Position numbers and translations under genes: made by a program
Shown here: piece after piece, positions 9,240 to 52,700 of the stretch
Layout: each line of letters starts with the position of its first letter
Position numbering within the stretch: the stretch's first letter is position 1
DNA from: Gyrodactylus bullatarudis
Lineage: Eukaryota; Platyhelminthes; Monogenea; Gyrodactylidea; Gyrodactylidae
Length of the DNA: 64,000 nucleotides
Assembly (NCBI GenBank): GCA_012064415.1
Contig: SSNU01000107.1
Coordinates: forward strand, 148,254-212,253
Reading direction: 5' to 3'
Notes under the pieces: generated by a model
What the model was told of the DNA's origin: nothing
The model's database searches: none
Seen by the model: only the letters and a program-made list of their open reading frames with translations

Positions 9240-12200
9240 TTACTGGAGACGTTCAAGACATCTGAGGCCAAGTTCTTCATAGTCCTTCTTGGTGATCCAG
9301 AATTCGCAGCCTTTATCTTTCATAATTTTGGCTAATATTGCTCCCCCGCTGAAAACCATGTGTTTACGTTGAGGGGAATCTTCAATACGAATTTTGAAGT
9401 TCTTAAATAAAATAAGAATTTTAATTATCGAAATACAAGAAAATGAGACCTCTATAAATTCATACATTCATGGATCATATGAAGCTCAAAATGAAAATTG
9501 GACGATATAATGGAAAAAAATTTGGAATATATTTTTTAATGAAGCATTAGAGATAAGAAAATTACTCAAATGTATGTATTGTCAAATTTTTTCATTTTCC
9601 ATCGCTACAGAATACTGTATTAATTGATTCAATTTCAAGAGTTAGAGACATGATTGATACTAAGGGAAAGTAACTTTGAAAACAACTACAACGTAATTAA
9701 TCGATCATAAGTCTGTAACTAAGATTAAAGATCATTCGATAAATACCATAACTAGTTACTGTTGAGTAGCCTCAATATTTACATAATCAAATAGACTTCT
9801 GATTAAAACCTCATTTATGTTTATTTTTCTATAAAATACAATCAATTTTAGATTTTATCAAACTATGACTTGTTCCTCTCATTCTACTGAGACAGACCCT
9901 TCAAAGAAAAAAACATTTATTTCTAAAAGATTCAATGACTATCTTGGTGTTTTGGTATGCACGAGGGTAGAGTAAAAAATTTAGTATTTTTTCTGAATGA
10001 TAAAATGAATTTTGAGCAATATTTTTGAAGTACCGTTATTTCATCAATGTTAAAATTACATGAAATTTTTCAAACTAACACGAAAATTCCAATGAATTTT
10101 TGCTACGTTGTCAGTGATTTAAAAACACTAAAATCCCGAATAGCTTGATTATTCAAAGTTTTTTTACAAAAAAAATAGTAATCTTATTATGAAAAGAAGC
10201 ATCATGGCGAAATATAATGTTTTATGATCCTTGTGGGAGATTATAGGAAAAATGAGCATTTCCATAACGTGGGATGAATTTTATTCCTCAAAAATATGCA
10301 AAACATCATCTGATTATTATTTTCTATAAGAACAGTAGCTATTCTTGTGAGTTGTTCGGAGAAAAGAAAATGTTCACCCTACCCTAGTGTACACTTTATT
10401 TTAAGGGAATTTTATCAAAAAAAAATTAGCAACCAAGCAGGTGAATAAATAATTCTAGAGCTCCAACAGATTTAGTATTTTTTATGATTGCGAAACTCTC
10501 CTGGCTAGAGATGCAATCAAAATCAGGTAATATTGCAGCACTTATACTTACAATGTTTATCTAAAGTTGGGAATCTATGATTTTTACGAAAATCTCGAAT
10601 TTTTCATCAAAAATTCGAATATGTGAAAGATATTTTAGAATCCTACTCATGTTGCTCACTTTTATGATTTAAAGAAAAAAATTATTTTCATGAAAAATAT
10701 GGTCATTTTTCAAATATCTATTTGGCGCCAAAAATTTTCGAACTTTGAACTGAAAATTTTTATTGATTTGAAAGTGGGAGTGTGACCTAAAGATGTTTTT
10801 TATGATCAAAATAATAGAAAGAAATCAAATATGCTGAATCTGTTCTTATGCATAGCCTCATTATCTTTTGGGAGCTGAATTTCGATCTTTAGATCAAATT
10901 CACTACTTGAAGATCAATGAAATTTCGATAAAACCAAATCCCTCGAAAATAGTGGATCTTTCGAAAGTTTATCAGAAATATTCGGCTTCCTCGTCTAGTT
11001 CTGATCTTTTGGCCACGTTCCCACTTTCAAATCAATAAAAATTTACAGTTCAAAGATCAAAAAAATAGGATTTTGGCGCCAAATCGAGATTTGAAAAATG
11101 ACCATATTTTTCATGGAAATAATTTTTTTCTTTAAATCATAAAAGTGAGCAACATGAGTAGGATTACAAAAAATCGAGATTTTCGTAAAAATCATAGATT
11201 TCCAACCTCATATCAATTAGCTTTACAATTATTTCGTTCTAGGTGCTTACTAAGGTGCTTAGGTAATTTATCACACAGGTCCGTCTTATTTGTTAATGAA
11301 TTAGCCAGCTTACAAATAGATCTTAAAGTAACTAGTACGTAAGAAATAATCCAAATATGCATCTTTTTGGTAGACACATAGGTTAATTTATTACCAAATA
11401 AGATGAATTTCTGGCCCAAATGTAAGTCAGTATTAATCATTTGAAATTGACTTACTTCAAGTTTTGTTGAATCCCCTTTAAGGACTCTACTGAGGATAAG
11501 TTGTTTGATTTCACGTTCTAATCTACTTGGAAGACCTGGATACATTGTACTACCGCCAGATAAGACAATATGCTTGTAAAAATCTGATCTTGTATCAACA
11601 TCAGCAGCCTGAATTGTATTAAATAACATTTCGGCTATCCCTACACCTTCATGGTCAATTAAATGTGGTTGGAATAATGCCTCTGGAGCTCCAAATCGTT
11701 CCCCACTCAATTTAATTACGCGGCCATCTGGTAACTAAAAAAAGGCTTTGAGAAAAAGTGATTAGGCATAAAATGTCAAGCTTAAAACTTACAGTGTATT
11801 TTTTCACTAATACAGTTGTATCGAGAGCAAGACTTTGTTCTTGCTCAAGATCATAGGCAACATAGCAAAGGCTTTCTTTCATTTGTCGGATAGTATCAAA
11901 GTCGGCAGTTTGATTGAACGCATAACCACGTAGTAATAAAAGCTGTGTATAAAAATATTTATTCCTGTTATTTAAAATGAGTCTACTTTTAAGTAATTTT
12001 GATTTTTTAAAAGATTATTTGGTCAATTATTTGTAAAATCTCAAGGCTTAATTTTATCACACTACGTTTAATAGTTTGTTTTCATGGATTTAATGAAAAT
12101 GATGATTATTTCATCGTCATACCGAATAATATTTGGGCTAAATTTTGAATGTAATATCCCAAGAATCTATAAATTGTAGAAACTAAAAAACGATCGCTAG

Positions 12201-12862
12201 TGAAAATTTAAGAAATTACAAGGATATATTATTAGTTTATAAAGAAGACTTACTTTGATAAGGTAGCGAGTAATATCTCTTCCGGCAATATCCAATCTTT
12301 TAGTTAAATGTTGAAGAGAATAACCTTTATACACTGGACAAATATGAGTTACTCCATCACCTGAATCAACAACAACGCCAGTAATTAATCCTCTAGCGTA
12401 AAGTGTTAGAACAGCCTGAATTGCGATATGAAGACCTTGGAATCCGTATTTCTCAAACATTACTTCAACCATTTTTTCTCTATTCTTTTTGGGATTAAGT
12501 GGAGGCTCAGTTAGTAGAATTTTTGATTGAGTAGGATCAATATTCATTTTTGAAGGTCCAAAGGTATAGTCATAAAGGTAAAGCATATCATTCCAATTGC
12601 GAACAATACCATTTTCCATAGGATATGTAATTTCAAGCATTTGTCTAACTTCATTTGCCTCATCACCGACCATTATGTCTTTAATCTCGACATTATCTAC
12701 TTTACTAGATGCCCTAATGATAGGTCTTCCTAACAAGGAAGGAAATATATGATCGGGAAAGTTAGATCCAGCATAGCCACATTTTACGAACTAAGTATTA
12801 AATAGAATACTTACACCTGTACCATTATCACAAACGATGATTTTATTCCCTTGATTGTCCAT
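9240..12862 (-). CDS. ARP2: Actin-related protein 2 (ARP2/3 complex subunit)
   Basis: ARP2 and ARP3 mimic an actin dimer that nucleates branched filaments. Five minus-strand exons keep phase: 12815-12862, 12254-12790, 11793-11942, 11456-11734 and 9240-9401. The product is 391 residues, against 394 in human ARP2. Residues 1-16 ([16 protein letters not shown]) give the N-terminal phosphate loop; FVKCGYAG follows. The second loop is [25 protein letters not shown] and [17 protein letters not shown] are strongly conserved, and the end [20 protein letters not shown] is diagnostic of ARP2 rather than actin. Intron 1 is only 24 nt (12791-12814, GTAAGT...TTAG) and contains an in-frame TAG, so it must be removed. 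Intron 4 (2.05 kb) holds a fold-back element. The gene is divergent from the hAT-derived gene at 13.3 kb. Confidence 0.95.
10566..11207. repeat. Large fold-back element, family P2, in ARP2 intron 4
   Basis: The arms at about 10566-10797 and 11011-11207 are reverse complements with few changes: ATCTATGATTTTTACG left, CGTAAAAATCATAGAT right, and TTGGCGCCAAA-type blocks in both. A second full copy lies at 22420-22960 and partial copies at 6640-7000 and 33190-33340. No coding sequence. In the ARP2 pre-mRNA it would form a long hairpin. Confidence 0.8.
11210..11450. repeat. Degenerate repeat shared with 42410-42690
   Basis: Blocks such as TTATTTGTTAATGAATTAGC, TCTACC/GGTAGACA and TAGGTGCTTA recur around 42410-42690, partly inverted. 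It lies in ARP2 intron 4, directly after exon 4. Confidence 0.4.
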
Positions 12863-13321: not shown

Positions 13322-16300
13322 ATGAATTTTATAAATAGCAACGAAAAATCATTGAAAGGTAAACTTAAAATGGAAAGCTTTGATTGCAACACCCAAAACA
13401 TCTGGAGAATTTTTAATCGAGAGGAAAAACTTGATGGTTTTCGAACGTGTATCGAATGCAAAACGCAGCATATATTCATGAACAACGATGTAACACATCT
13501 TTTACACCATTACATTATTTGTCACCAATCCCGAAAGCGACCATATGAAGATTCATGCCAAGGAGTTTCTTCATCAAGCTTGATGGATGTGACAATCTGT
13601 AAATTTGTTGCAATTCAAAAACTTCCAATTCATTATTTAAGTCTACATGCTCCATGCCGAGATGAGTATGTTCGATTGATGCCAAACCTACCTTCATCTG
13701 GAAAGTCGATTCGTCTCCTAATAATTGATAAATTTCAAAGCATCAAGACATGTTTGAAAGTAAACTTGAAGAGTCTAATCATAAAAAATCATCGATTCTC
13801 GATAATAACTCAAGAATTTACAAATATTTCAAATCGAAAGTATATTTCTGTAAAAGTTTTTGGATCTCATGAATCTGGAGAACCTCTTGAATATTCTCTC
13901 GGCCTGGTTCGAGTTAAGGGAAGTTTATCTTCAGAAAAGTATGCTGAATCAATTCTCAAACTGCTGAGCGAATATGATATCGACGTTAAAAGACACATTG
14001 TCGGTTTAACAGCAGATAACTCAAAGAAAATGAGAAAAGTTGCGCAACTATTGGATCCAGTATTGTATCAAATTTGTCCTGCTAATGCTGTTCGAATGGC
14101 AATGATTGAATTGCTTTTCGAAAGACACTGTGATAACCATGCTTCTGAAATTCCAGATGATAGTTCAGATGATGAAGATATCGCTGACGATTCAAGTGAC
14201 CTGCTAGACTCTATTCACGGAGAAAGTAATAAATTTGAATCATATCTTCGATCGGAAGAGATCAATGATATTTTGGTCAAAGTTTTAAAAATAGCTCAAC
14301 AACTGAAAGAGTTGCAAGGCGTTTCAACTGGTATTCTTAGACTAGTTGATTTGTCCAAGAAAATAGCTATAGAAAGTAAAGATTGGCTCAAGATTTATGA
14401 AGTTCTCAATGAGTATAACTCATCTAGAGGAAAAATAAAATTGGCCTTTTGTCAGAACTGTAAAGTTTATAGTATGTCAGAAATGGACGATCAGAAAATA
14501 TGTAAGTTGCAGAGTCTTTTTCGTATTCGACTTTTATATTGTATATATAATATCCATAACTACTTTAAAGTAACTATAGAATTTTTGAATATATATACAC
14601 TGATAATTGTTTTAAATGAATTATATTAGAGAGGTTCCATTGGAGTAATCCATTGAATTATAGTCATGAACCACTCAAAAATCATTGTTATTAATAACAT
14701 GTTACGGCTAAGTTCTGTAATAGAGTAAATATATTTTCTGTATTTTAATCAATATGTCCATGGTGATAGATTTTCCATGTAGCATTGTAGAAGTTAATAG
14801 AAAATATGCATTTATTGGATATCTTAAAAAGAACTATGACTTATTGATATTATTAATCTATTTAGAACTATCACCAAACCACCGGTGATAGCTCAGCTGG
14901 CAGAGCGGAGGACTGTAGTGGTAAACGCAGATATCCTTAGGTCGGTGGTTCAAATCCGCCTCACCGGATAATTTTTTTAAAATTCAAATCTTCAAATTAG
15001 GATTTGTTATTTCAATTAAAATTTCTTTCCTTTCCAAATTTTCTTCTATATTCTCATTCTTTTCCAGCTGGACTTGTTAAAGTCTTGGAAGTTGTAAAGA
15101 GAAATCTTGAAAAAATGTGTAGCCTGAAATCAAGTTGTATCTCTATCAGAATCTTAGTTGACGAGTTATTAAAACTCCGATTCAAAGACCATGAAATATT
15201 AGGGGAAGAATTGAACAAGAATATCATAAAGAAACTCGAGGAATGCTATAACAAGACGAGTGTAAGTTATATCAAGAGATTACATTTCGAATGCTTTAAC
15301 TCAATTGTGTTCATTTTAGTTCCATATCTCTTAGTATGCGTTCTCAATATTTTTGCTAATCTATGAGTTTAATATAAAAACAATATCTTGAAAAAGTATG
15401 AAAATTCTAAGGCCATCATATCCTAAGGGATGAAGTTTTTCCGTTTTCATCTTTTATACTTGAATTTTATTAAATATTTTATGATATCAGAAAATAGATT
15501 AAACAAATAAGATTAGTTTGCGTAAATATGTTATCGTTAATCTTATTACTCTTAATAGTCTCAAGACTCTCTGGAAATGAAGTTGACATTGTTTCTAGCA
15601 ACAGGTTTATCTGAAAGTCAGTACTAACTGTTGTATACATAGAATTCATATTTATTTGGTATGAGCAAATATATTCTTAATATAACTCTAGTCTTGATAA
15701 GTCTTTGAATTTAATTATAGCGCCTTGTACTTTGTTCATAACGTCTCGACTCGAAGCGTCCTGGCCTTTGTTTAACTATATTTGTAAAAGAGGTAAATTA
15801 ATCATGAATATTTATAAGATATAATCAAGGCAGGATATAACATCCCTCCCTTTTTAAGCTGTTTTCCAATAATATTATTTGTAATATATTTTATAGTTAA
15901 ATTAAATAAATATATATATTTTTAATATTCAAACTCGTTTCGATATTTTTTGTTTGGAACTGGATGTCTTGAAGATTTCCTAGTGTTTGTATACTTTCTG
16001 TTTCTATTTCTATTTTCGGAGCTTGACCTCCTACCTCTTGATCTATCTTTTTTCTCTTTATATTCGGGTTTTCTTTCCCTACTTCTTTCTTTACTTTCGG
16101 AGTAACTTCTCCTACCTCTTTTCCGTCTTTCCTCTTCTTTTTCGGAGTTACTACTCCTACCACTTCTTCTAACTTGTGAGTTTTCAGAGTCTTTGCTCTT
16201 ACTTCTTTCTCTTTCTTTTCTTAGTTTTATGTGATTTTCATGTCTTTTATCCTCTTTATCATCATTTTCATTTTTAATTATGTATATCACTCCATTAGTC

Positions 16301-19300
16301 TTTATTATTTCACCTTTTTCCCATTTTTCTCGGTTTTTACCGATGCCTAAGTACCATACTTTTTGGCCTTTTTTATATTTAGACGGCTTCTCTTTTGGTT
16401 CTTTTGGATGTACTAATAAGTCTAGGTTTGGTATTAAACATTTTTTCTGCATTTTATAAAATTGAAACATTTCATCTTTTAAGTTATGCTTATTTTTCCA
16501 TTTTGAGTAATCTAAGATATTTTCTTTTATTTTTAACAAATCTTCATCTTTCGTTGACTCTTCTTTAATCTTTTCCCAAGTTAAGGGCGACTTTTTAAAT
16601 TTATTTATCATATTTTCTGTTAACTCAAGGTCAATTTTATTTATGATTGCGATTATGTTTTCTTGAGCTAATGATTTATTATCTTCAATTAGACGTGATA
16701 AAGCGTCTGCCATTCCGAACTCTTTAGTACCTATGTGTTCAATGTTGAAATCATAATTGGCAATTAGTAAACCCCATCTTTGAAGTCTTAGAGAAGTATA
16801 AATTGGTATTCCATTTTTCGGTTTAAAGATATGTAATAAGGGTTTGTGATCTGTCTGAAGTATAAATTTCTTTCCTATTATAAATTTGTGGAATCTTTGG
16901 ATAGCTAATATTAGTGCTAAACCCTCTTTCTCAATTTGGCTATATTTTCTTTGACTAACGTCAAAGGTAGCATGCATATGTTGTATTGGTCTTATGATGC
17001 CATTCTTATCTTTTTGTAGTAGTACGCCACCCATGGCGTAGTCACTAGCGTCGGCTGCTACTATGGTAGTTTTATCTAAGTCAAAATGAGCTACCATTGT
17101 TTCTTTACAAATCAGATTTTTTATATTTTCTACTACCTTAGTGTGTTTGTCTGACCAAGTAAATTCCGCGTTTTTATGAATAAGTTGTTGCAGGATTGGT
17201 GTATATTTATATAATTCTTTCATGTATGGACTATAAAAAGTAACCATGCCTAGGAATGTCATTAAGTCTTCGAGGTTTTTTGGTAATTTCATGTTTTTGA
17301 AAGTCTCGACTTTTTTAGGGTCGGGTCTTCTGCCATGTTCATCAATGATATGTCCTAGGAATTTTATTTCTTTTTAGAAAAATTTTGATTTGTCTAGGTT
17401 AGCCTTTAGTCGAAATTCATTTAACCTTTTGAAAAGTTCTATTAGGGTTTTACCTAACTCTGTTTCGTTTTTGGCGAATCCCAGGATGTCATCCATATAA
17501 GTTCTTACATTAGTCAAATTTACTGTGACTTTATCTCTGACTTCTTGGCATATAGCCGGAGCAGATTTTACCCCAAAACATAATCTTTTATATCTATATA
17601 ATCCTAGATGAGTGTTGACTGTGAGTATTTCTCTAGATTTTCTTTCTACTGGGATTTGTAGAAATGCTTCAGTTAAGTCAACTACGAAGAAGATTTTACC
17701 CCCTGCTAATGACGCAAGAACGTCTTCTATATTTCTCTGAGGATATTTGTATGCTAGTATTTGGTCATTGGCACTACCTGATAAGTCGATGCATGTCCTA
17801 ATTTTGTTGTTAGCTTTTTGTACATATACTAATGGTGCAGCCCAGTCTGAGTATTCTACTCTTTCTATGTAGTTCGCCTTTTCCAATCTCTTTATCTCAT
17901 TAGTTATAAGTTCTTCTCGATGATAAGGAACATCTCTAGCAGCTCTAAACACTGGTATAGCATTTTCTTTTAGTCTGATTTTAGCTTCAATTCTACATAA
18001 CCCTATAGAAGTTTCGTTTAGTTCTTTAATTTTGTCTAGATAAATTTTATTTTGAGTTTCTATGTTACATATTGTTATGTTTTTGCAGTTAGGACAAGTT
18101 TTGACCTACTCTCATAATTTTGAGTGTGTCGATTATGTTACGTCCTAGGATATTTTGTGGAATTTCAGATGACACATACATGTTAGTGTTTAGTGTTTGA
18201 TTTTGATATTTTATTTTGGCTTTAAATTTTCCTTCTATCTTAAGTTTTTGTGTGTTGGCTACAGATGCTATGATATCATTCTCTTCTAACTCTTGATATG
18301 TTTTATCTTTATAAGTTTTTAAAGTTATTAATGATATTTTTGCACCCGTGTCATATAGGCTAGTTATTTTTACATTGTTAACAATGATATCTATTTCAGT
18401 GTTCACTTCGTCATCATTAATGTCGTTAAAATTTATGAAACATATATTACAGTTTAAGTTGTCTCTGCATTTGAACTCCGGATGTCCTACCTTCTTGCAT
18501 TTTTGACACTGGTGGTATCGGTAACGACATATACCCATGTGTGTCTTGCCACAGCCTGAACATGGTTGGTTGGTTGGGTTGAAGACTGGTCTGTCCCTGG
18601 CTGGAGGGGCTGGTCGTCTTGGTTGGAATTCTCGCCGGACTTGTTGGACTGTGGTCTCTGGTTTTGGCGCCTCTTCTTTTTTCGGTTCATCGCAGGTCTG
18701 AAACATCTTGGCTTCAGCCATGGCGTTCATCACGATGGTGTGAGGATAAAGATCTTCTACCCCTTCTTGGTTCTCTTGAGCCCTTCTTCTTTTTTCGGAC
18801 TCTTCATTCACTTTCTTTAAAACGATCTCCTTCATTTTTGCATGTCTCTTGTCTTAAAGTGAAGAAATAAACGCGAGTAACATGCTTTCGCCTGTGGACA
18901 TGTTTGTCCATTCAGCTTTCTCAAACTGATCCATGAGTTTTGCGCACCACTCATCGTACTCAGTGCCCTCAGGGATAGCTTGTGTAAACAGTTCAATTCT
19001 CTTCAAATGTAACGGGACTTTGTCCGAGTAGATTGCGATCAGTTTCTCGAGGACCTTCTCAATGGTTACCTCGTCGTCATTGATATCTAATGGCTTCATG
19101 GCGTATCGAAGGTTATTGAAGGCTTTGTCATCCAACTTTTGCCATAGATATCCTTTCTTTTCATAGCTCGACAGATTAGCAGTTTCAGTTGTGAATTGTG
19201 GACCTATTCTTGCCCAAAATTTTGCGAAATCTCCATTGGGGTCATGTTTGAAGACCTCGTTGGACCGGGTGAGTGCTAGTCTAAGTTGGTGGTTGTTAGT

Positions 19301-21547
19301 GGCCTGTCTTTGTGCGGACACGGCGTTGACTTGGATGTCGGTTGTATTTTGTTGGTATCCCACTTCTGACACCACTGTTGTATACGTGGGGGAAGAAGGA
19401 AGAGAAGTTTGCGTATTGATAGAATTCATATTAATTTGGTATGAGCAAATATATTCTTAATATAACTCTTGTCTTGATAAGTCTTTGAATTTAATTATAG
19501 CGCCTTGTACTTTGTTCATAACGTCTCGACTCGAAGCGTCCTGGCCTTTGTTTAACTATATTTGTAAAAGAGGTAAATTAATCATGAATATTTATAAGAT
19601 ATAATCAAGGCAGGATATAACACTAACTAACTAGTTACATTTTATCATAGGGTACTCTTATTTTCTCTAGATGATGGTTGTGAATGAACAGTATATTTTT
19701 TTTACTGAAAATGTTTACAGATTATCTTTTGAGGTTGGATTTAAACAAAAACCAACCATAATAGACATTTCTCAGCTAAATCACTCTATCATTGATACAT
19801 TCAGACCAAAATTTCTCAATTATTTTTCAAAATAATTTCAAAAGGAACATCAAGTAAGAAATGGTGTTTAGATTCTGTCAAAACTCAGTCTGTAGATTCA
19901 AATCATGATACATAGAAATATGTAATAATGTTTCATACATGTTCAAATATTCATGTTTTAATCGAAAAAAATTCATTTCTGAAAATTAAAATGAAAAACT
20001 TTTGTGTCAAAATTAAAATTGTGGAATACGATAAGATTCCTAATACTTACTTTTATATCGAAATAAACAGTTTATATTATAAAATGCCTAGTTTTTTTAG
20101 AATAAAATTAAGGCTTGGTAATATGTATCAGCTACCAACTTTTGGTTGAAGAAATTTTCCTATTTACCTACTGAGTAGTACTCAGTCTTATCTGAGAAAT
20201 CTTGTGATTACTATTGCTGAATATCTTTATTGATCAAACAAAAAATAACGACTTAGAAAAAAAGTCATTGCGTGAGATTTCACAGTATTTTATTTCAAGA
20301 TTTGAAAATGACAATGAATTGTTTTGTTGACAGGGAAAAATTAATATAAAATGAAAGTTTTTATCAGAGTATAATTTTTTACATCGAATAAATTATTTAT
20401 TTGTATCCTCTTTAATAATTTCAGATATATATTACCGTTTAAAAATTCGATTATTTCAGCTATTCAATAGTATCGATTGGAAAATATTATGAAGCTAGTT
20501 GACTTGAAAATGAGAAATTACTATTTTTACAAAAAGCTCAATATTTTTCGCCATAAAGTCACGAGAGAAATAATTTTAGAATTTCGAAGAAGCATTTTAA
20601 TTCCACTTTGTCAACTTTCCGACCCGAAATTTTCATCGATTTTGATAGCTAATCGCCGGTGATAGCTCAACTGGCAAAGCAAAGGACGAAAAAAAATTTC
20701 AAATTCACAAATAACTCATCAAAATCCAGGATTCACATACATCCCGTATCTAGCATCTTTTAAATTAGCATCTAATTTTAACTTTAGATCTAAATTCATC
20801 AATAAATGCAAAATAATTGGAGGGAAAAAGTTAATAAAACTTAATGACCTGAATAATAAAAATATTTTCAAATTCCCAAAATGTTCATATCTCAAATTTA
20901 AATTTATGATCTACTACAAAAGACTGTTTTCTCTTGAAATTCATTTGCTGAAAGGTGTTTTTCAATTTTCAATTATCATTAGGATCTCATAAGTTAATTC
21001 TTGATTTTTTTTCAAGTTCATTCAAATGTTGGAATGGCTGAAAAATCCACAATTTTACCAAGGAGATACAACTAATCTGATATCATCAATCGTTTTTCAC
21101 ACAGTTCGTTTATTTCCCACAGCTATCAATTCAGTTTGTTATGATAAAGATAAAGATCCGGAACTACAGAATAGTTCTTGTGTTAATTTAAATAGCAGTA
21201 ACAGTTGTCAAATAATTGATGATAATTTTTCTGAACTACCCAAACCTTCAGAAATTGTTGTCACAGAAAAGACAATTTTCGATGAAATTAAAGAGGCAAA
21301 GCTGACAAACATTCGTGGTCCGATATTGAATTTATTATTGAATGCTTTCCTAACACTACGCCCACTTGGCTGTGAGAAAACTCAGGTTTACGATTTAGCC
21401 CATCATTCTGTCATTTATTTCAAATGTCAAATGACTGACATTCTAATAGGAGCCTTATATTTTCTCAATTCAAATATTAAACTATATGTGAATATCAAGA
21501 ATTGTCAAATTGAAGGAACAGAGCAATCAAAATCTAAAAATTGTTAA
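13322..21547 (+). CDS. hAT-transposase-derived protein, three exons
   Basis: Exons 13322-14501, 15068-15261 and 21017-21547 join in phase (GTAAGT donors at both introns) to a 634-residue frame without stops. Residues about 26-70 look like a BED zinc finger: WRIF, CIEC, then HLLHHYIICH. The middle has RNase-H-like transposase features, including a VGLTADNS block, but the DDE triad cannot be confirmed. The C-terminal exon ends TLRPLGCEKTQVYDLAHH and ILIGALYFLNSNIKLY, which aligns with the hAT dimerisation domain; the usual SERxFS is degenerate. An internal ATG at 13370 has better context. No terminal inverted repeats or 8-bp duplication were found around it, and the introns host a tRNA gene and an LTR element. 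This suggests an old, possibly domesticated transposase. The function is unknown. Confidence 0.6.
14882..14968 (+). tRNA. tRNA-Tyr (GTA) with 14-nt intron
   Basis: The 7-bp acceptor pairs CCGGTGA with TCACCGG, followed by discriminator A. The A box (TAGCTCAGCTGG) and B box (GGTTCAAATCC) are intact. The anticodon GTA is at 14915-14917, and the intron lies after the base 3' to it (14919-14932, TGGTAAACGCAGAT), the canonical position for eukaryotic tRNA-Tyr. The spliced loop reads CTGTAGA. A T7 run at 14972-14978 would terminate polymerase III. The gene sits on the sense strand inside intron 1 of the hAT-derived gene. A 5'-half copy is at 20656. Confidence 0.97.
14972..14978 (+). terminator. RNA polymerase III terminator of tRNA-Tyr
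   Basis: A run of seven T starting four bases after the tRNA 3' end. Confidence 0.7.
15624..15628. repeat. Target-site duplication (left) of LTR element
   Basis: CTAAC abuts the LTR here and again at 19623-19627 on the other side, the 5-bp duplication made on insertion. Confidence 0.85.
15629..15842 (-). repeat. 3' LTR (214 bp)
   Basis: Nearly identical to the 5' LTR except for a clean 33-bp absence near its 3' end. In this copy the ATG that begins Gag in the 5' LTR is followed only by AATTCTATGTATACAACA. Confidence 0.9.
15922..17373 (-). pseudogene. LTR element RT thumb, RNase H, integrase remnant and RS-rich tail
   Basis: In frame with the RT part after its TAA. It begins KEIKFLGHIIDEHG (RT thumb), then FLGMVTFYSPYM. 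RNase H follows, with IVAADASDYAMGGVL, EGLALILAIQRFHKF and TDHKPLLHIF. A KMQKKCLIPN boundary normally leads into the integrase zinc-binding domain. Here it jumps directly to an integrase C-terminal-like region (KYKKGQKVWYLGIGKNREKW), so the zinc-binding and DDE core are deleted. The last 95 or so residues are arginine/serine-rich (RS and SR dipeptides), unusual for such elements. The product could not integrate DNA by itself. Confidence 0.8.
17374..18087 (-). CDS. LTR element reverse transcriptase (palm)
   Basis: This frame is shifted relative to the protease and starts around NCKNITICNIE. Recognisable motifs are the VPYHREEL leader, WAAPLVYVQK, FFVVDLTEAFLQIPV (first catalytic Asp), LCFGVKSAP and YMDDIL (the YxDD box). 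It ends at TAA in KSKFF*KEIKFLGH. The frame continues unbroken after this stop as the connection and RNase H region, so the TAA looks like a disabling mutation. The Ty3/gypsy-like domain order supports the class. Confidence 0.8.
   Translation of the reverse strand, partial: CKNITICNIETQNKIYLDKIKELNETSIGLCRIEAKIRLKENAIPVFRAARDVPYHREELITNEIKRLEKANYIERVEYSDWAAPLVYVQKANNKIRTCIDLSGSANDQILAYKYPQRNIEDVLASLAGGKIFFVVDLTEAFLQIPVERKSREILTVNTHLGLYRYKRLCFGVKSAPAICQEVRDKVTVNLTNVRTYMDDILGFAKNETELGKTLIELFKRLNEFRLKANLDKSKFF
18089..18853 (-). CDS. LTR element nucleocapsid zinc knuckles and aspartic protease
   Basis: In frame with Gag after its TAA; the first ATG is at 18835. A proline/arginine-rich linker leads to two zinc knuckles, CSGCGKTHMGIC and CQKCKKVGHPEFKC. 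A retroviral-type aspartic protease follows, with active site LYDTGAK and the C-terminal ILGRNIID. The frame stops at 18089. Reverse transcriptase continues in another frame, overlapping at the end. Confidence 0.8.
   Translation of the reverse strand, partial: DKRHAKMKEIVLKKVNEESEKRRRAQENQEGVEDLYPHTIVMNAMAEAKMFQTCDEPKKEEAPKPETTVQQVRREFQPRRPAPPARDRPVFNPTNQPCSGCGKTHMGICRYRYHQCQKCKKVGHPEFKCRDNLNCNICFINFNDINDDEVNTEIDIIVNNVKITSLYDTGAKISLITLKTYKDKTYQELEENDIIASVANTQKLKIEGKFKAKIKYQNQTLNTNMYVSSEIPQNILGRNIIDTLKIMRVGQNLS
18854..19429 (-). CDS. gag: LTR element Gag, N-terminal part
   Basis: A 191-residue frame begins at an ATG within the 5' LTR and reads through the primer-binding site (residues about 19-25). 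The middle has a Gag capsid-like helical pattern (FAKFWARIGPQF, YDEWCAKLMDQFEKAEW). It ends at a TAA; the same frame then stays open through the nucleocapsid and protease part starting 18 bases later. So the stop is either a single nonsense change or a readthrough point. No host role. Confidence 0.7.
   Translation of the reverse strand: MNSINTQTSLPSSPTYTTVVSEVGYQQNTTDIQVNAVSAQRQATNNHQLRLALTRSNEVFKHDPNGDFAKFWARIGPQFTTETANLSSYEKKGYLWQKLDDKAFNNLRYAMKPLDINDDEVTIEKVLEKLIAIYSDKVPLHLKRIELFTQAIPEGTEYDEWCAKLMDQFEKAEWTNMSTGESMLLAFISSL
19376..19622 (-). repeat. 5' LTR (247 bp)
   Basis: It begins at the CTAAC duplication (19623-19627) and ends TATACAACA one base before the primer-binding site. It carries 33 bp absent from the 3' LTR. 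The Gag start codon (19429) lies inside it. Confidence 0.85.
19628..20490. other. Intron 2 of the hAT-derived gene, non-coding part
   Basis: Nothing is recognised except a perfect 17-bp dyad (20170-20186). The reading frame at 19928-20149 has no motif. Confidence 0.3.
20490..20652. repeat. Half-copy of fold-back family P1
   Basis: It begins AGCTAGTTGACTTGAAAATG and continues TTTTTACAAAAAGCTCAATA, matching one arm of the 2.8-3.3 kb element. It is cut off at the tRNA-Tyr fragment. Confidence 0.55.
20656..20687 (+). pseudogene. 5' half of tRNA-Tyr followed by an A-rich run
   Basis: CCGGTGATAGCTCAACTGGC and the bases up to AAAGGAC match tRNA-Tyr (14882) through the D-arm to the start of the anticodon stem, with a few changes. 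The match stops there and continues as GAAAAAAAA. A truncated tRNA with a 3' A-run looks like a retrotransposed tRNA half. The copy could also be a DNA-level fragment. Confidence 0.6.
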
Positions 21548-43700: not shown

Positions 43701-46700
43701 ATCTACTGATTGGAAGAGTAGAAATATTAGCTGCTTAAATTTTTGAAAGTCGAAATTTTATATCTAGTAAAGTTATACTTTTGAGGATAGAATGAATATA
43801 CATAAATATTTATAAAAATTATAGACTATTATAATAATAATCCAGCTTATAAATTGATTTGTAGCTATTGATAGGTTTCATTTAATCAAATACTTCAAAT
43901 GCAAGAAAAAATCGTGATATGTATAATATACATTTTGTATATTTGTTTAAACAGAATAATAAGAATAAAATGACTCACTTGATAAGAATTGTTGAATCCG
44001 GGGTGGTCTAAATCATGGCATATTGCCGCTGTTATGAGGACACATTGATCGAATTTGTCAAGTAATTTCTCCAAGTTTCCTCTCCTTATCAATACATAAC
44101 TCTGAAAGAAAGAGTTTTTATAGAATATTCTATTCGTAAAAAAAGTTTACCATCAAAAATATTTTTGACTATTGCAATGATAAATGAGTTCAGGGAATTG
44201 TTTGCCATGTTGCTAAGTCAACCATAAATGATTTTCTAACATAGTTAATCTTGATTGTTCAGCGAAGGAAACTCAACAAGATTTCTTCATTTGATTTTAA
44301 AGTTGATCAAGCGTTTTTCGGCTCATGGAACAAGATTCTATTTTAAACGAATGAATAATAATATTAACTCTGGTAGTCTAAATTCAGTTCATTCAAAAAT
44401 TGAAACAGATTTATTCAATTTACCCTCTATTCATTTTTAACAAAAAAATGTTCTAAAACTGGAACTAATTAGTGTGAGTGAAATTGGCAGTTTGAAATCC
44501 ATTCAAAATATTCCACACTAAAATTCCGGTTAAGACTGTCAAAAGATTTTTAATTGATTCCTATGATTAAAGTCAGATATACGAATGAATGTCAGAGATG
44601 AACAGAATCAACATGTTGAGAATTGGGATGCGAGCGAACATGGTGATTTATCGATTTTTCATGTATGGCTGATGATGAAAAGGAAAAAATACAAATGTGA
44701 AATAATTTTGCTTGTTTCTTTATAAGAGCAGATGAATCTAGATACATCTATTGAGCAAAGATTAATTATGAATGATGTGCTTTTAACAATGTTATTCCCC
44801 TGATACATTTTTTAGGCCAATGAGTGCCAAACTAGTATATTGAATTATGAGAAATTGTGGTATATGATTATTCTAGCGGCTTTTTTGATTAGATAAAATT
44901 GATATTTCAATTTGATCTTTTGTTTAGGATGAGGATTGTCAATTTCTCTGCATTCTCATCAAATGATATTTTTAAAAACCGTAATCAAATTTTTTATCTT
45001 TCAATTTTCAGCATAGATTTCCCGCTGATGAAATGAGGTTTTCTACATTGGGAAATGTATTTTCTCAAATTCCCCCAAATTGATGCAAGTACTTTTCTAG
45101 TTTCTCTTCAAGATATAATTGCAGCTAGAACCTTCATTTAGACTATAAAGAATTTTGGGAAGAAGAAACTGCTTTTGTGTTGGTCGATCACTCTTAGTCA
45201 ATAAGAATTGAGTATTTTCTGTCATTTACATCATTAGAAAGAGAATTATTATTGTTAGATTCTGAACTCATATGGAAGATTAGAGAACAACAAGGGTATA
45301 TTCGAGTGATAAACGTTATATTTCGCCGGGTCTCTTGACTGGTAATGTGATTATCAACTATTGTTGACTTCTCATTGTTTTCACATTTTGTCAATTCTGT
45401 AATAGTTACTGGGGCTGTACACTGGATAGGAGATAGAAGATCATCAGCTTTAGCTAACGTCTCATTAATTTCAGTTTCTTTTTCCGTCTCATTTTGTGTC
45501 GAGCAATGGGTGGGAGTTCCAACATCTAGATTCAGAATTCTTCCGATTTTCGCAATCTGCTTGCTTTTGATGTGGACATCACGACCTTTGAATCCTAATT
45601 TATTTGCAAACTCCTTGAGGACACATAGATTTGGTTTGAGCTTGGTGATGAAATGGCTTTCAGCGCAGCTCAAATTTGCTTGTCTGGTCTTGCTTGATTC
45701 CGTTGGATTGACTTGGTATAGGATTTTGAAGTTCGACGTATCCGCGAATTGACCTGTTGCCTCTAGATAGTGATGAATTGCACTGTTATGTTTTGGTCTG
45801 AGGTGTTCTCTTACTCTCTCTCCAAGTGATCGAATTGTTTGTCCAACATATGAAAATCCACATGAGCATTTGAAGTGGTAAATAACCCCTTTCTTTTTCA
45901 GCGTTGGGATTTGATCTTTATTGCGACCGTTGATTAGTTTCGACGTCCTCTGGATGAGCTTGAGCTTCTTCCCTGGAAATGTTCGCTTAGTTATTTTCGA
46001 CAGTTTGTTGTTCAAAATAGCCTTGCTTGCATCTCCTTTGAAAGGTAGAACCAGGTACAAAGGTTGGTCATTATCATCTTTCTCCTTCGACTTGTCTTTT
46101 GGGTGGGAGTGTTTTTCGATGAAGTTTTCCGGGTATCCGTCGCGCTTTAGAAGGTCTTACAGCTTCTTCCTCTCCTCGTGTATGAATTCAGCTGAGACTA
46201 ATCGATCAATGCTTAGAAAGGCATTGCTCACCACACTCTTTTTTGTTTCTATAGGCGAAAAACTATGAAAAGGCAAAACCTGGGTAGGGGTTGCTGTCTT
46301 TCGATGAATCCTCGTGATTGCTCGTGAAATTTCAAGATCAAGAAAACTCAGCTTCCCTTCAATCTCTATTTCGTTGGTTTACATTGGGATGGATCTTATT
46401 GAACTTTTGGCTCATTTCTCCGACATCAGCGTCTCTTTCAACCACTAGGAATGTGTCATCAAGGTATCTGAGGTATAATCGGGAGCTGGTGATCTTCTGC
46501 TGCATTGGTTCCTGTTCAAGGGATGCCAGAAACATATCAGCGAGGACTGGAGCTGACATGTCTAGAATTGGTCTGTACGTCAAGTCGGTCGACTCCTTGT
46601 AGACTTTTGGGAGCAAGTACAAACGACTAATTTCCGCATCATTTTTCCGCATTGAGTTGGCTTCATCTACGTTGATCAAACCTCTTTCTTCTAAGGACGT

Positions 46701-49700
46701 TATCTTGTTGTGTATTGCCTTCATGAAACCTTTCAATCTTTTCCTAGTTTCAACGGCATCGACGAGAAGAAATCTTTTCCTATCTGCTAGGAGGAGTTTT
46801 CCTTTTGACAGGTAGTCCGTCTTGTCCACTAATGCAATGCTTGTTCCTTTGTCAAGATGGCATAGTAGAACATTGGGATTTTTCCTCAGTTTAGATAGAG
46901 CGTCGTAGTGGTACATTTTCAGCTTTGGTGCGTGAGGATTTCTCTGCTTGAATTGTGTTCATGCGTCTTTCACAACTGAATTGAAACGCTCTCTGTCTTG
47001 ACTGGAGGAGGCTGTTAGTTTCTCTGTCCTGCTGATGAAGCTTTCGAAGCCAATATCCGTTTCAACATCAAGTTTAGTTAGATTTGGCATAAAAAACTTC
47101 GGTCCAAGACTCAGAACTTGTAAGGTGGCCTTGTCTAAAATTAAATTAGTGAAATTAAAAACATTAGACTCAGGATTCTTCGGAAATAGAGAATCAATAT
47201 AGGAATCGATGACCGATTTCTCCATTTCTATTCTCTTCTTGTCTCCTTGGAATGTTGATATTTGATTGAGCTTGACAAAAAGTCTCTCATGAAGATTTTG
47301 TGGTAGTATTTCGATATCCTTGATCAATTTGGATTTCCGCAGCTCATTTTCTTCTATATTTTTCCGTAATTCGTCGATCCAATCCGTTGTGACCTTTATC
47401 GCATTTTCATTCGTTTGCTTAATTTTGATTGATTTGATCTTATCCCAAAGTACACGGCTGAACTTTTGGTTGTCTATACAGGTGTTATGAAATCTGATCA
47501 TATTAATATCACAACATAGGTTGGACATAACTTTAAGCAATTTGTTGTGGGGCATTGACGAGTTCGAAGTGAATCCATTAGTACGAAAATATTGTCGAAC
47601 CTCATCAAGAATTTTTATCTCTTATCTGAATTTATTTTTTTATTGAGACTATTTGAACTGTTATAGGACTGGAGACAATTTTTTGGTTGATTAGAATTGT
47701 AAAATAGTAAAACACAATTGGGTGTTACAACTATAATGATCTGATTATCCTAACAGAAATATGTATTGGTTATATATGTACATTTTACTACAAAATTTAT
47801 GTTCTTGTAAAAATTTATGCTCCAAATAACTGAGAATACAAATATACTAACTAGGCTTAATTCAATTCTTTGAAGAGATCGACGTCTCAAATCTTGTATG
47901 AAAATTAGGAAAAGTTAAGTAGTTGTTTTTTAGCCAAACCCTAGGAATATAAATTTTATTTATTTTTCATTCAAGAATAGTGAAAAATTAAATTATATGA
48001 GAATTAAGAATTTAAACTAACCATTTGAGTAACCATAAACGCATGTTTAAAATTGTGAAAAGGGACTTGGTTGTAATGCTTGTAGATGGCTTGCATCCAG
48101 GCATCTAAATCATCTACTTTGATTGGTAGATGGGGCTCAACAAGGTTCAATTCTGTGTACATCTCTCTTACTAATCTCATTAACATGGAATCTGAATGGG
48201 ACCAATTATTGAATTCAGTTGTACGTAATACTTTTCTTAATTCATCATCGACGGAATCTGTAGTGCTGTAAGATAAAAATATAGTGCTGTAAAGATTTTA
48301 TAAACTCCTCTTTGATGAATTTTAGCATAAAATTTGTAAATTTTAAATGTTCCAGATAGAATTTGACGAGCAATATAGATTAAAATTCACATTAAATTTC
48401 CGTAAATTTAAGTTCAACTTTTAGGTGCCACGCATTAAATTTTTTAATTAATTTTAAATGCTACGTTACCAAGGTGATAAATTCATACTCTCTTGTAGTA
48501 CATATTCATCAAATGAATATATTATGAATAGGACAAGAGTTACCGTTTAGCAAATTTGAAATTAAATTTTTAAATTTGCATAAGAAAAAAATGCTCAGAG
48601 TTTGGTGTACTAATATACTGTTAATAAATCATTCAACTAGTTTTAAACTAATTTCGTCAATCAATTCGTGTTAAGAAATATTTTCATGAGAGGTACTTGA
48701 AATAAAATGAGTACTAAAGTTTTGAAGAAGAACCTACTTGATTTCATCTTTTTATGATAGAAAAGAACCCAATTAATAAATTTTAATGAGTGCGAAAAAT
48801 ATTTTTCAAATGAATATTAGTTAAGAGAATGACCTAGAAATTTTAATGAACCGAGAATTTTTCTTTTTGTTGACTAGGAATTCTGGTTGAATTATACAGG
48901 AGGATTAATTTCTCGGGCAAAGAGTCAGCTGTAATTTTTAAATTTTATTTGCTTACCTGATCTATGAAAGCTAATTTTATCGTGTCCTTTATTTCAATAT
49001 ATACTCGTAGTATCTCGACCAGAAAAGTACTTTGACATATATTTATTTATACATTGATAATGTTGAAAAACTTTGATCGATAGATAAAACAAACGAAGGA
49101 CAAACCAAGATGTGTACTTTAACCCTAATAATTAAATAACTATCGTTGTTTTTAATAATTTTTGCTTTTTAAAAGTTAAGGTGGATTCCTATGAATTGAA
49201 AAATATTCATTTTAATTAAACCTGCTTGATCCCTGTTAATCTTCAGACCCAGACGATACATTTTTAAAAATATGCCCTATTTTCAAAAAAAATCTGTTCC
49301 CAGCTGTTGACTAATTGGTTCCAGCAATGATTTTAATTTAACTTGTCATATTTATTTATAAATACACTCAATATAAATGTATTTTTATAATCATGTCTAA
49401 ATACACCATAAAGAATAATATTTTTATCGTTCTTTATCAAAAAAGCGTTTTCCAACAGATGTAACATTAACTAATCAAGTTAAGATTTTAAAAAAATTAC
49501 AAATTTTTAAACTTGAGTTGTGTAAAAATAAAATTAGATGACGAAAAGAATAGATTTTCCTTCAAGAATCGTAAGATGATTTGCATAATATCTAATTTAT
49601 TTCGGATAATCTTTGGTGAAAAAATATTTACATTCATTTCTTCGGAAGAGAAATTTCCCATCCATGATAGTGAAACTTTTTTGGGTGAAAAATATGAAAG

Positions 49701-52700
49701 ATTTGGTTTAAATTTCACATCTTAAAATCCACTTAAACAAACATGGTAACTTTGTAGGTATGCATGAAACCTACTAAAGTAAAGTGTGTTTAAAAATTAT
49801 TTGTAAAATACTGATTACAATATCCTTGAAATCTAAATTGATGTAGAATTGTCTTTTCATACCTAGATGTTGGAAAAATATGGTTTATTACCTGAATCTC
49901 TTGGAAGTTTGGGTATTTATTCAAATTGAAATGTCATTATAATTTTTCAATAAAATTCGTAAAATCTTTGACTTGAATATAATTGGGAAATGTTTACTAG
50001 GGAGAGATTTTTCAAATTTTATATGTTCAATTTCATTTTCCCTGGGTGAAAATGTGGTTCAGAATAAATTTTGGTTCAAAATTATCTGAATTTTTATCCA
50101 AAATTATTTTCTACTAAAGTGGCAATGAAAGTGTCAAAGTTCCATTTTTTGTATATGTATTATACATAATGTATATGTTAAATTCTTGATTTTTCTACGG
50201 TCTAGAAATAAATTGATTAATTCCCTTGATATGTCAATAAAAAGCTATGAAATACAAAATCATAACCGGATATGGTTATATGAACAAATTTTCGATCCCT
50301 AATTTTATTTTCTTTAATTCGACTAGTATTTGTCTAGCCGGAAATGAACGTTAATATCTATTTGCCTTATTGCAAATCCCCTTCATACTAGTTTGCTGGA
50401 ATTCTTCAAGTTTTTTTATCCTATTTGAATGAATTTCATTCTTATTATCCATCTTTAACCCCTTCGAACCCGTTAAAATGCAGTGATCGCCTAAAACTGT
50501 TGATCGAAGGGGTTAATAAAAAATGGAAAAATAGAATAATTATTCTATTTTATAAGCTTCAACATTAATCTCTGCATACTTTTTCGTAATTGAATAAATC
50601 CGGATCAATTTAATTTCTCAATTAAAGTCAATAATAATAATTGATCAAGGGTAAATATTGCAGGTTGATCAATAGAAAAGTAAAATAATAAAGTTCATTA
50701 AAGAACTATAGAAAAATAACTTAAAGTCTACAAGAAGGCTATTTGTGGCTGAAAATTTTTCAAAGAAAATACAAATATTGACTCAATTTTACATTCAAGT
50801 TGAAATATTCTTGATAAATACTTGTAAAATACACTTACAAAAGACAAATAAACTTAGGATTTTGTAAAGATTCTATAGTCATAGCACTGAACTAAGTAGT
50901 TCTTTTGTGCGAAATTACAAACCTGGGTTCGAGTCCTGGCTATGGTGTACTGACGAGTCCTAATAAGGACGAAACGCGTCTACATCTGCCAACGTGAGTT
51001 GAATATTATTTGACTCTCTTATGGAATTGACACTTGCTTATCCGAATTTCTAACATCTAGGTGTGAGAAGACAATCTCCATCAAGTTAGAGTTCATATGG
51101 ATATAGTAATTACCAGTGACCACACTTTGCTAGTAGGTTAATTGTCTAAAAAAACTGTAATTTCTACATGTGCTTATTTACAAAATTAGATTTTCTTCCG
51201 ACTTAATGTTAAAAATACAATCAAGTTAGAAGGCAAATTATATTTAAAATAATCTTCTAAAGAAATTTCCTGGTTTAATGACATAACTAAAAATCTATGC
51301 ATTATAATTATGAAAGGAAAACCGAATATCTGAATGACTATCAGATCATTGGAAACAAAATAGGCACGCGATTCAAACTTTAAATCATTGAAATATAAGA
51401 AAATAACAATAATTTAAGAAATAAATAGAAAAATTTTAATGAAAATGTCTATTGTTCAAAAAATATTTTTCTTATCGACTTTGGAAATTCAAAGAAATAG
51501 AGCACGTTCGAAACCAGTCCATTACAAGTGAATGGGACTTGAAAATAAATAAATGAAAAACCTTTGAGGTACTCAAAATATCTCATTGTGAATACAACTA
51601 ATGGAAAATTTCTGTCAAATCAGTTCACAATAAAACTTGAAATCCTATGATCAAGCATAAAATAGGAAAAAGGAAATATCTTGCATTGCATATATACATA
51701 CACAGTGTGTATTACACACATATATGAACCGAAGCCTACATTTATCGGAAAAGATAAATTTGAATCGATAAATGAATTCTACTGGATGATAAATCAATGT
51801 CTATTCTTCCATTCTTTGTATATGAAGGGAAATTTTCATCAATCAAGTAAATAACTTTCAAAGTTCGTATAAATCAACAGAATTTCTGAAAACTTTGACA
51901 AAAAGTAAGTCGAATATTATCCAAGGCTTATTTCGAGTTTATAGAACAACAAATCTGCTCGTGTAGGAATTTGCTTTGAATTCTATTATTTACAAAGTTT
52001 AAAAATGAATTTATAATTGGAATTTTTTGAAATAAAGCCACTGAATAAGAGATGATCTTGCCTTTTCTAATACTATATCTTTTTTGAATGTCAATCTTAT
52101 TTTCAAGTATATGTCCATTGGTTAATGGACTTTTTTGGTAAATTAATTTTAATATTTAATCACTTGCCTTAACAATTTTCAAGAGATCGCTAGACATTAT
52201 GCATTGATAACAAGTAAAAATACATTTCGAATTATCTCTTCAATCAGCAATTTAAAACATTCACTTTGATTATAATTATCGAAATTGGATAAATTCGACT
52301 ACCACGTAGATAACAGTATTTGACTATACTCATACATTTTTAAAAATAATTTATAAGATAATTAATTATTTTCCACAATTCTATCAAATCTAGAGATACA
52401 TTTCTAATGTATTGATTTAGAATCGTTTCAATTTCAAATTTTAAAAAATGGAGAAATAATAAATTTGTAATGACCAGGGCAACTTAAGTCATATTTTGGC
52501 ATATTTAGATTTTATGTTAATATACAACAAACACTGAATCTACTCATATCAATCACGAAAAAAATTCCAAAATTTAACGGAATTCTTAAGTCATATACAT
52601 ATGCTTTACCTCGTTAAGTCATATTTTTTCTCATAAGTCATAAACTATGACTTAGAGTACAGCACAATTTTTAAAACTATCAACATTACGATTCTCGAAC

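What the first reader, a model, noticed from the sequence alone, without database searches (positions are those of the whole stretch)
50878..50990. A tRNA-like cloverleaf runs straight into a complete hammerhead ribozyme
Seen: all hammerhead core bases (CUGACGA, GAAA, GUC cleavage triplet), a 4-bp stem II and a stem I with internal loop, directly preceded by a foldable tRNA-like unit with a perfect B box. Known: schistosome Sm-alpha SINEs carry hammerheads and polymerase III signals. Inference: this is a SINE whose transcript self-cleaves after 50980, in an animal where it may not have been described. It is the clearest candidate for a new RNA system here.
Basis: partly seen in the sequence, partly recalled or inferred. 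Interest (0 to 1): 0.93.

Follow-up and report, generated by a model that had tools for sequence, protein, structure and literature searches.

The report
Self-cutting RNA repeat copied by Penelope
A short non-coding repeat in a parasitic flatworm carries a self-cutting hammerhead RNA and, in its fuller copies, a tRNA-type promoter, and the scars it leaves when it inserts match those of Penelope retroelements, which points to the machinery that may spread such repeats in animals.

Summary
The hammerhead is real: Rfam type I, 50944-50986, 26.6 bits, E 3e-4, below the curated cut-off of 34; its core recurs 326 times in the genome (up to 3 mismatches; reversed control 0). The cloverleaf is not: this copy starts at 50921, so only the B box belongs to the element. 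Other copies can carry A and B boxes before the hammerhead (both exact in 10 of 46), but the tRNA model matches none of 18 loci. The host is a gyrodactylid flatworm (COX1 89% to Gyrodactylus). The unit is about 370 nt. Of 67 insertion clusters 34 are head-to-head composites; 20 of 33 tested have one 11-14-bp target duplication. In 23 of 26 typed composites the arms start at two sites a median 35 nt apart (p 4e-5). Penelope-like elements of the same genome do so in 6 of 6 typed composites; a 2024 study calls this 'tail' unique to them. I read it as a retrozyme-like element with a Pol III promoter, copied by Penelope machinery from RNA continuous round the unit (circle or multimer). Self-cleavage, circles and transcription are not shown. 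New variant of a known kind.

The parts
50921..51185 (+). the repeat copy: unit positions u311 to u370 then u1 to u206, 5'-truncated in the tRNA-related head, 3' end at the A-rich site; no clear target duplication (best direct repeat 7 nt)
50926..50936 (+). B box GGTTCGAGTCC (Pol III internal promoter half)
   Evidence: sequence; GGTTCGAATCC exact in 34 of 46 copies
50944..50986 (+). hammerhead ribozyme, type I; expected cut after 50980
   Evidence: 26.6 bits, E 3e-4; gathering score 34
50974..50979 (+). stem III as palindrome ACGCGT (one closing pair and CGCG); could pair with a second copy
   Evidence: sequence; alignment shows no loop; dimer action inferred from PMC7229834
51145..51155 (+). 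short priming site: A run after TCT (about u165-173 of the reference unit)
   Evidence: sequence; 3' ends of other copies
51177..51185 (+). long priming site TTTACAAAA (about u198-206) = 3' end of this copy
   Evidence: sequence
   Evidence: not shared by the 45 other copies lined up; no tRNA match
45194..47621 (-). decayed Penelope-like element (reverse transcriptase and GIY-YIG-like motifs by eye; Pfam RVT_1 only at E 0.026 here); relatives in the genome show the same insertion geometry
   Evidence: RVT_1 at 2e-7 on relative L073
49814..49876 (-). old decayed fragment of the same repeat (u67-130, about 85%)

Best explanation
It is one copy of a non-autonomous, retrozyme-like retroelement of a gyrodactylid flatworm. 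Fuller copies are transcribed by RNA polymerase III from an internal A box and B box (inferred). The RNA carries a type I hammerhead whose palindromic stem III favours dimers, so multi-unit RNA should be cut to ~370-nt monomers that the host closes into circles (inferred; I favour circles over uncut multimers as template). A Penelope-like reverse transcriptase cuts both target strands about 13 bp apart. Each cut end primes on the RNA, one near the A7 run (about u205) and the other about 35 nt upstream near the A5 run (about u170). The two cDNAs run round the unit, sometimes for more than its full length, and are joined head to head (scars shown; enzyme inferred). The window copy is a single-arm, 5'-truncated product.
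For: Hammerhead. A and B boxes in the family. Period 361-370 and arms longer than one unit: (14 of 106 arms over 370 nt, 20 of 106 over 310). Head-to-head composites: 34 of 67 clusters. Neighbouring core sites are all minus-then-plus: 8 of 8 within 1 kb among the 100 listed of 326 sites, and 10 of 10 within 3 kb among the 100 listed of 314 Penelope core sites (from the lists). One target duplication round the composite: >= 9 nt in 21 of 33, swapped-flank control 10 of 2504. Different priming sites in 23 of 26 typed composites, 13 expected, p 4e-5; median offset 35 nt. Penelope-like copies of the same genome: different sites in 6 of 6 typed composites (12 loci, 7 composites), direct repeats of 8-13 nt at the ends of these six. 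PMC11167929 (parts 1 and 2 of 4 read): a Penelope protein starts at two adjacent internal sites and extends both strands; [quoted passage not shown] Both arms from one RNA source: agreement at 70 of 78 diagnostic sites, 39 expected. Template usually not the ribozyme-cut linear RNA: 0 of 106 arm 5' ends in u1-15.
Against: No RNA data: circles, cleavage and Pol III transcription are not shown. The sequence round the priming sites is not significantly similar to that of the Penelope copy compared (343 of 1000 shuffles score as high), so the partner element is not identified and recognition is unexplained. Other retrotransposon families of this genome were not scored for the offset. Long tandem arrays, usual for animal retrozymes, were not found among the 40 best candidates. 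The one dimer found has two cores, but both end in GTA instead of GTC, one has a broken stem II, and Rfam reports only the other. The hammerhead core is no better conserved among copies than other stretches (153 of 245 windows as low or lower). Only 10 of 46 copies have both boxes exact. Single-arm copies rarely have a target duplication (5 of 29). Eight of 34 composites could not be typed, and 3 of 26 typed ones use the same site twice. No tRNA match in 18 loci. Arm 5' ends also cluster at u256-300 (35 of 106), which a linear Pol III transcript would explain as well.
Confidence: 0.68

Rival explanations
1. Same element and same Penelope copying, but the template is a linear multimeric Pol III read-through transcript of a rare tandem locus; no RNA circle is involved. 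(This shares the copying step with the best explanation and differs only in the template, so the odds overlap.)
For: A dimer with two ribozyme cores 366 nt apart exists (L078). The reference unit holds no TTTT terminator, so a tandem could be read through. Arm 5' ends cluster at u256-300, near the expected Pol III start (35 of 106).
Against: 20 of 106 arms are longer than 310 nt and so run back past the A box region, although only one two-core locus turned up among the 40 best candidates. Not excluded.
Confidence: 0.4
2. An ordinary tRNA-derived SINE moved by a LINE, with inversions from classical twin priming.
For: A and B boxes; target duplications of 11-14 bp; inverted arms.
Against: In classical twin priming (recalled) the inverted part lies upstream in the same RNA; here both arms cover the same stretch and both start in the same region. 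The paired ~35-nt offset is reported as a Penelope trait. 3' ends have two main sites rather than one tail.
Confidence: 0.12
3. Head-to-head copies come from self-priming: the cDNA folds back and copies itself (self-priming is discussed for Penelope in PMC3846280, passages read).
For: Arms of one insertion are near-identical (median 1.9% against 4.9% between insertions).
Against: A fold-back copy cannot contain sequence beyond the start of the first arm, yet 23 of 26 typed composites have one arm ~35 nt longer at its outer end. If the longer arm came first, the copy would have to stop at the same ~35 nt each time. Target duplications wrap the composite in 21 of 33.
Confidence: 0.12
4. One reading: a tRNA cloverleaf joined to a hammerhead, whose SINE transcript self-cleaves as a monomer after 50980 to release a 5' product.
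For: Hammerhead at the place; B box present.
Against: Cloverleaf half is unshared flank; no tRNA model match; A box absent from this copy; no arm 5' end in u1-15; palindromic one-pair stem III.
Confidence: 0.08

Closest known systems
Animal (non-LTR) retrozymes (Cervera and de la Pena 2020, PMC7229834; abstract, passages and sections 13, 15, 17 read)
   Same: type I hammerhead, ~170-400-nt unit (370 here), non-coding, target duplications longer than 4 bp, co-existence with Penelope-like elements
   Different: dispersed copies, half of the clusters head-to-head, instead of tandem arrays; A and B boxes in fuller copies, whereas a 2020 review says retrozymes do not seem to harbour promoters (PMC7761336, passage); circular RNA not shown here
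Sm-alpha / Sj-alpha SINE-like elements of schistosomes (PMC2770079, passages; PMC8490949, passages; Ferbeyre 1998 not held)
   Same: same phylum; hammerhead in a SINE-like repeat related to a tRNA
   Different: no Sm-alpha sequence was at hand, so homology is untested; the paper ties the S. mansoni element to tRNA-Gln-TTG, while the head here scores best but not decisively with recalled Glu, Val and Gly tRNAs and lowest of the six recalled ones with Gln
Penelope-like elements (PMC11167929, parts 1-2 of 4; PMC3846280, passages)
   Same: head-to-head inverted copy, short target duplication, tail of ~35 nt at one end only; a hammerhead-like core by eye in the own genome's copies
   Different: no open reading frame; no significant sequence similarity at the priming region to the Penelope copy compared
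Axolotl hammerhead repeats (HHR_Amex1, PMC7229834 section 15)
   Same: stem III of one pair with a palindromic tetraloop; ~330-nt unit
   Different: tandem repeats and about 60,000 motifs of this type there; 326 core matches here

Membership tests
Hammerhead ribozyme type I (RF00163) | core bases and stems scored by the covariance model | tested here: met
   26.6 bits, E 3e-4 in the window; below the gathering score of 34
Hammerhead ribozyme type I (RF00163) | self-cleavage | not testable with these tools
   needs in vitro transcription
Animal retrozyme | unit of 170-400 nt with a type I hammerhead, no coding | tested here: met
   unit 370 nt; a hammerhead match at E <= 5 in 18 of 18 scanned loci, 17 as Hammerhead_1 and one, at an inverted junction, as Hammerhead_3, none reaching its gathering score; 16 of the 18 loci had been chosen for an exact core
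Animal retrozyme | tandem copies in the genome | tested here: inconclusive
   partial tandems up to about 1.5 units and one dimer with two cores; no array among the 40 best candidates
Animal retrozyme | circular RNA in the cell | not testable with these tools
   no RNA data; template continuity round the unit is indirect
tRNA-derived SINE | A box and B box at normal spacing | tested here: met
   TGGCCTAGTGG exact in 15 and GGTTCGAATCC exact in 34 of 46 copies, both in 10; u272-282 and u316-326 of the reference unit; the window copy has only the B box
tRNA-derived SINE | tRNA cloverleaf recognisable by model | tested here: not met
   no RF00005 match at E <= 5 in 18 loci, nor at E <= 10 in the window stretch
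tRNA-derived SINE | one common 3' tail | tested here: not met
   two main 3' sites, u151-180 (38 of 106) and u196-210 (38 of 106)
Penelope-type insertion | head-to-head inverted copy within one target duplication | tested here: met
   34 of 67 clusters composite; duplication >= 9 nt in 21 of 33
Penelope-type insertion | 30-40-nt tail at one end only | tested here: met
   23 of 26 typed composites, median offset 35 nt, range 25-53; own Penelope copies 6 of 6 typed
Penelope-type insertion | recognised by a named Penelope protein | not testable with these tools
   no significant sequence similarity at the priming region
Sm-alpha | sequence homology to Sm-alpha | not tested
   no Sm-alpha sequence held

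The most novel reading that the evidence does not exclude
Genomic scars record that a single circular hammerhead RNA is copied twice at once by a Penelope enzyme: both cut ends of the target prime on the same circle, at two sites ~35 nt apart, and the two cDNAs are fused head to head. This would identify Penelope-like elements as the mover of animal retrozymes and add a Pol III-driven class of them.
Probability: 0.4. Interest if true: 0.78.

Novelty: new variant of a known kind. Interest (0 to 1): 0.62.

Why it matters
It has been proposed, without direct evidence in what I read, that Penelope-like elements move animal retrozymes (PMC7229834 discussion; a 2024 review names LINEs or Penelope-like elements, passages). 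Here a dispersed family of non-coding hammerhead repeats carries, in the sampled composites, an insertion signature that a biochemical study calls unique to Penelope, beside Penelope copies with the same signature. That makes the question testable by counting scars in any genome with retrozymes. The A and B boxes would also suggest how some of these RNAs are transcribed. In the held library no paper joins 'Gyrodactylus' with 'hammerhead ribozyme' (0); 'retrozyme' and 'pLTR' occur together in 2 papers, of which I read passages of one (no mention of tails on retrozymes there) and only the listing of the other. The listings, which show only the top of each ranking, held no title or abstract opening on Penelope tails of retrozymes. 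Subscription papers and preprints are not held.

Tried and rejected
Cloverleaf in the window copy: rejected. Selection on the hammerhead core seen as low variation: not found, 153 of 245 windows of the same length vary as little or less. Sequence likeness of the priming regions of the repeat and one Penelope copy (L066): not significant, 343 of 1000 shuffles. A tRNA of origin: recalled Glu, Val and Gly tRNAs score 45, 45 and 43, so no assignment. Hammerhead in the Penelope copies by Rfam: none at E <= 10 in 12 loci, although a core-like stretch (CTGAAGA, GAAA, ATC) recurs 314 times with up to 3 mismatches, control 0; I call it a hammerhead by eye only. GIY-YIG domain of the window's Penelope by Pfam: not found for the three window frames at E <= 10 or for L069 at E <= 1; NCBIfam and PDB sequences gave none for L069 either; the motif is by eye. 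Pfam GIY-YIG is found elsewhere in the genome, 19 places. A second Penelope-type family (L079, L080) shows no match to the repeat beyond 10-base words. Protein search with the window's Penelope end: no hit at E <= 0.001.

Limits of the sample: 40 loci were chosen by similarity to the window copy and 16 from the list of exact cores, so copies without the hammerhead are under-sampled. The 67 clusters include small or old fragments. Three clusters close to a locus end (in L018, L049 and L053) were left out of the duplication test (64 of 67 used). In one search only arms of L009-L048 of at least about 60 nt and 90% identity were used (69 arms). In one search segments under 40 nt were dropped (106 left). 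One search dropped Penelope hits under 85% identity, among them a diverged inverted fragment upstream in L066 (77%), which I count as separate; no swapped-flank control was run for the Penelope direct repeats. L001-L008 duplicate other loci and were not counted.

Full report
What the sequence holds. Infernal gives Hammerhead_1 at 50944-50986, 26.6 bits, E 3e-4 for 601 bases against all families; the family's gathering score is 34, so the scan of the whole window at gathering lists only a tRNA at 14882-14968. The same 31-base core, with up to 3 mismatches, occurs 326 times in the 77.3-Mb host assembly and the reversed pattern 0 times. So it is a repeat, not a chance motif.

The cloverleaf. Matches of other copies to the query 50860-51120 start at 50917 or later. 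I lined up 46 copies at 50921, the window's own among them; none of the other 45 shares more than 4 bases directly upstream with the window copy. In many of them that place holds a head such as 'tggcctagtggttagaagcgttgcctcacaacgttgaag' or a shortened form of it, i.e. an A box followed by the B box GGTTCGAATCC. The A box is exact in 15 of 46 copies and within 2 mismatches in 27; the B box is exact in 34 of 46; both are exact in 10. So the family has a Pol III type 2 promoter directly before the ribozyme, many insertions are cut short within it, and the window copy has lost the A box. Rfam's tRNA model does not match the head in any of 18 scanned loci at E <= 5, so I call it tRNA-related by its boxes, not a cloverleaf.

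The host. A COX1 gene on another contig, read with the flatworm mitochondrial code, is 89% identical to a Gyrodactylus albolacustris cluster, 85% to Macrogyrodactylus, 83% to Paragyrodactylus and 71% to Benedenia. The window is therefore from a gyrodactylid monogenean; the species is not fixed.

The unit. Copies that run on past one length repeat with a period of 361-370. I used one genomic copy as a 370-base reference, numbering from the first base after the ribozyme cut (u1). The A box is u272-282, the B box u316-326, the ribozyme core u338-370, and two A runs lie at u168-172 and u203-209. Mapping 56 loci gave 67 clusters of segments. Of 106 arms of 40 nt or more, 14 exceed 370 nt and 20 exceed 310 nt; the longest is 556. 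The longest arms cross both the cut site and the stretch between the A7 run and the A box, so the template was continuous all round. A doubled-unit search over the 40 best candidates found no array. The longest match is a dimer with two ribozyme cores 366 bases apart and, by eye, a 9-base direct repeat at its ends; both cores end in GTA, one has a broken stem II, and Rfam reports only the other (26.2 bits).

The insertions. Thirty-four of 67 clusters are composites with a minus arm on the left and a plus arm on the right. Among the 100 listed of 326 core sites all 8 neighbours within 1 kb are minus then plus; among the 100 listed of 314 Penelope core sites all 10 within 3 kb are. A direct repeat of 9 bases or more flanks 21 of 33 composites, 20 of them with 11-14 bases, against 10 of 2504 when flanks are swapped between loci; single-arm copies have it in 5 of 29. 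So a composite with such a repeat is one event. The two arms meet with a gap or overlap of at most 3 bases in 26 of 34 junctions, and they resemble each other more than copies in general (median difference 1.9%, n 27, against 4.9%, n 4521; 70 of 78 diagnostic sites agree, 39 expected). Both arms thus came from one RNA source, with gene conversion as a caveat.

The tail. Arm 3' ends fall mainly into two places, u151-180 (38 of 106) and u196-210 (38 of 106), with 10 between and 20 elsewhere. Of 34 composites 26 have both outer ends in the windows u150-182 or u190-216; in 23 of these the two arms use different windows, where 13 are expected if arms were independent (p 4e-5); the median offset is 35 nt, range 25-53. 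Three use the same site twice and eight could not be typed. Single-arm copies use either site (14 long, 12 short, 5 other of 31). Penelope-like copies of this genome, relatives of the window's own decayed element, show the same: of 12 loci, 7 are composites, 6 of these could be typed, and in all 6 one arm ends at 1865-1872 and the other at 1902-1916 of the L066 numbering. Direct repeats of 8-13 bases flank these six, and one of 11 flanks a single-arm copy (no control run). [quoted passage not shown] The A. vaga paper (PMC3846280, passages) describes the inverted copy, a 31-bp tail at one end and target duplications of 8-10 bp, and also elements without a duplication.

How it most likely works. 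Shown from scars: continuous template, two priming sites, two arms, one event, same geometry as the genome's Penelope copies. Inferred: that a Penelope enzyme does it, that the RNA is Pol III-made, that the ribozyme cuts and the product is closed into a circle. The ribozyme's stem III is the palindrome ACGCGT; the axolotl form with one pair and a palindromic tetraloop is weak alone and more efficient as a dimer (PMC7229834). That would spare single insertions and cut only multi-unit RNA. None of 106 arms has its 5' end within u1-15, so ribozyme-cut linear RNA is not the usual template; uncut or re-closed RNA is. The Anolis study also found unprocessed RNA to be the dominant substrate in vitro.

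What speaks against. No RNA was seen. The partner element is unknown: the priming regions compared share no significant sequence. Other retrotransposon families of this genome were not scored for the offset. Arrays typical of retrozymes are missing from what I could search. The ribozyme core varies among copies as much as other parts. The clustering of arm 5' ends at u256-300 (35 of 106) fits a linear Pol III transcript as well as a pause at the head.

Place among known things. It works like an animal retrozyme moved by Penelope; as a retrozyme its key test, circular RNA, could not be made, and the tandem criterion is only partly met. Sm-alpha of schistosomes is the nearest described element by anatomy and phylum; homology could not be tested. 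I rate it a new variant of a known kind.

Noticed in passing
L063:698-777: At a head-to-head junction the two arms create a hammerhead-like fold of type III on both strands (31.6 and 29.6 bits, below gathering).
   Followed up: no
window 49814-49876 (-): Decayed fragment of the same repeat (about 85%), so the family is older than the many copies that match the window copy at 93-99%.
   Followed up: partly
window 45194-47621 (-): Decayed Penelope-like element with relatives across the genome; by eye it lies beside a phosphodiesterase-like exon near 48060-48300, perhaps in an intron.
   Followed up: partly
window 15922-19456 (-): Gypsy-like retrotransposon frames; RNase H and RVT_1 domains in two of them.
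   Followed up: no
window 14882-14968 (+): tRNA gene with an intron-like insert found by Rfam (56.2 bits) and not by ARAGORN; by eye tRNA-Tyr.
   Followed up: no
window 11213-12790 (-): Exons of an actin-related protein 2 gene; the longer one is up to 79% identical to animal ARP2.
   Followed up: partly
L079:435-480 and L080: A second Penelope-type family with a 3' stretch that looks like another hammerhead (CTGATGA, GAAA); Rfam does not report it at E <= 5.
   Followed up: partly
L026 and L045: By eye, flanking DNA of over 100 bases is repeated on both sides of some insertions, longer than the usual 11-14-base duplication.
   Followed up: no
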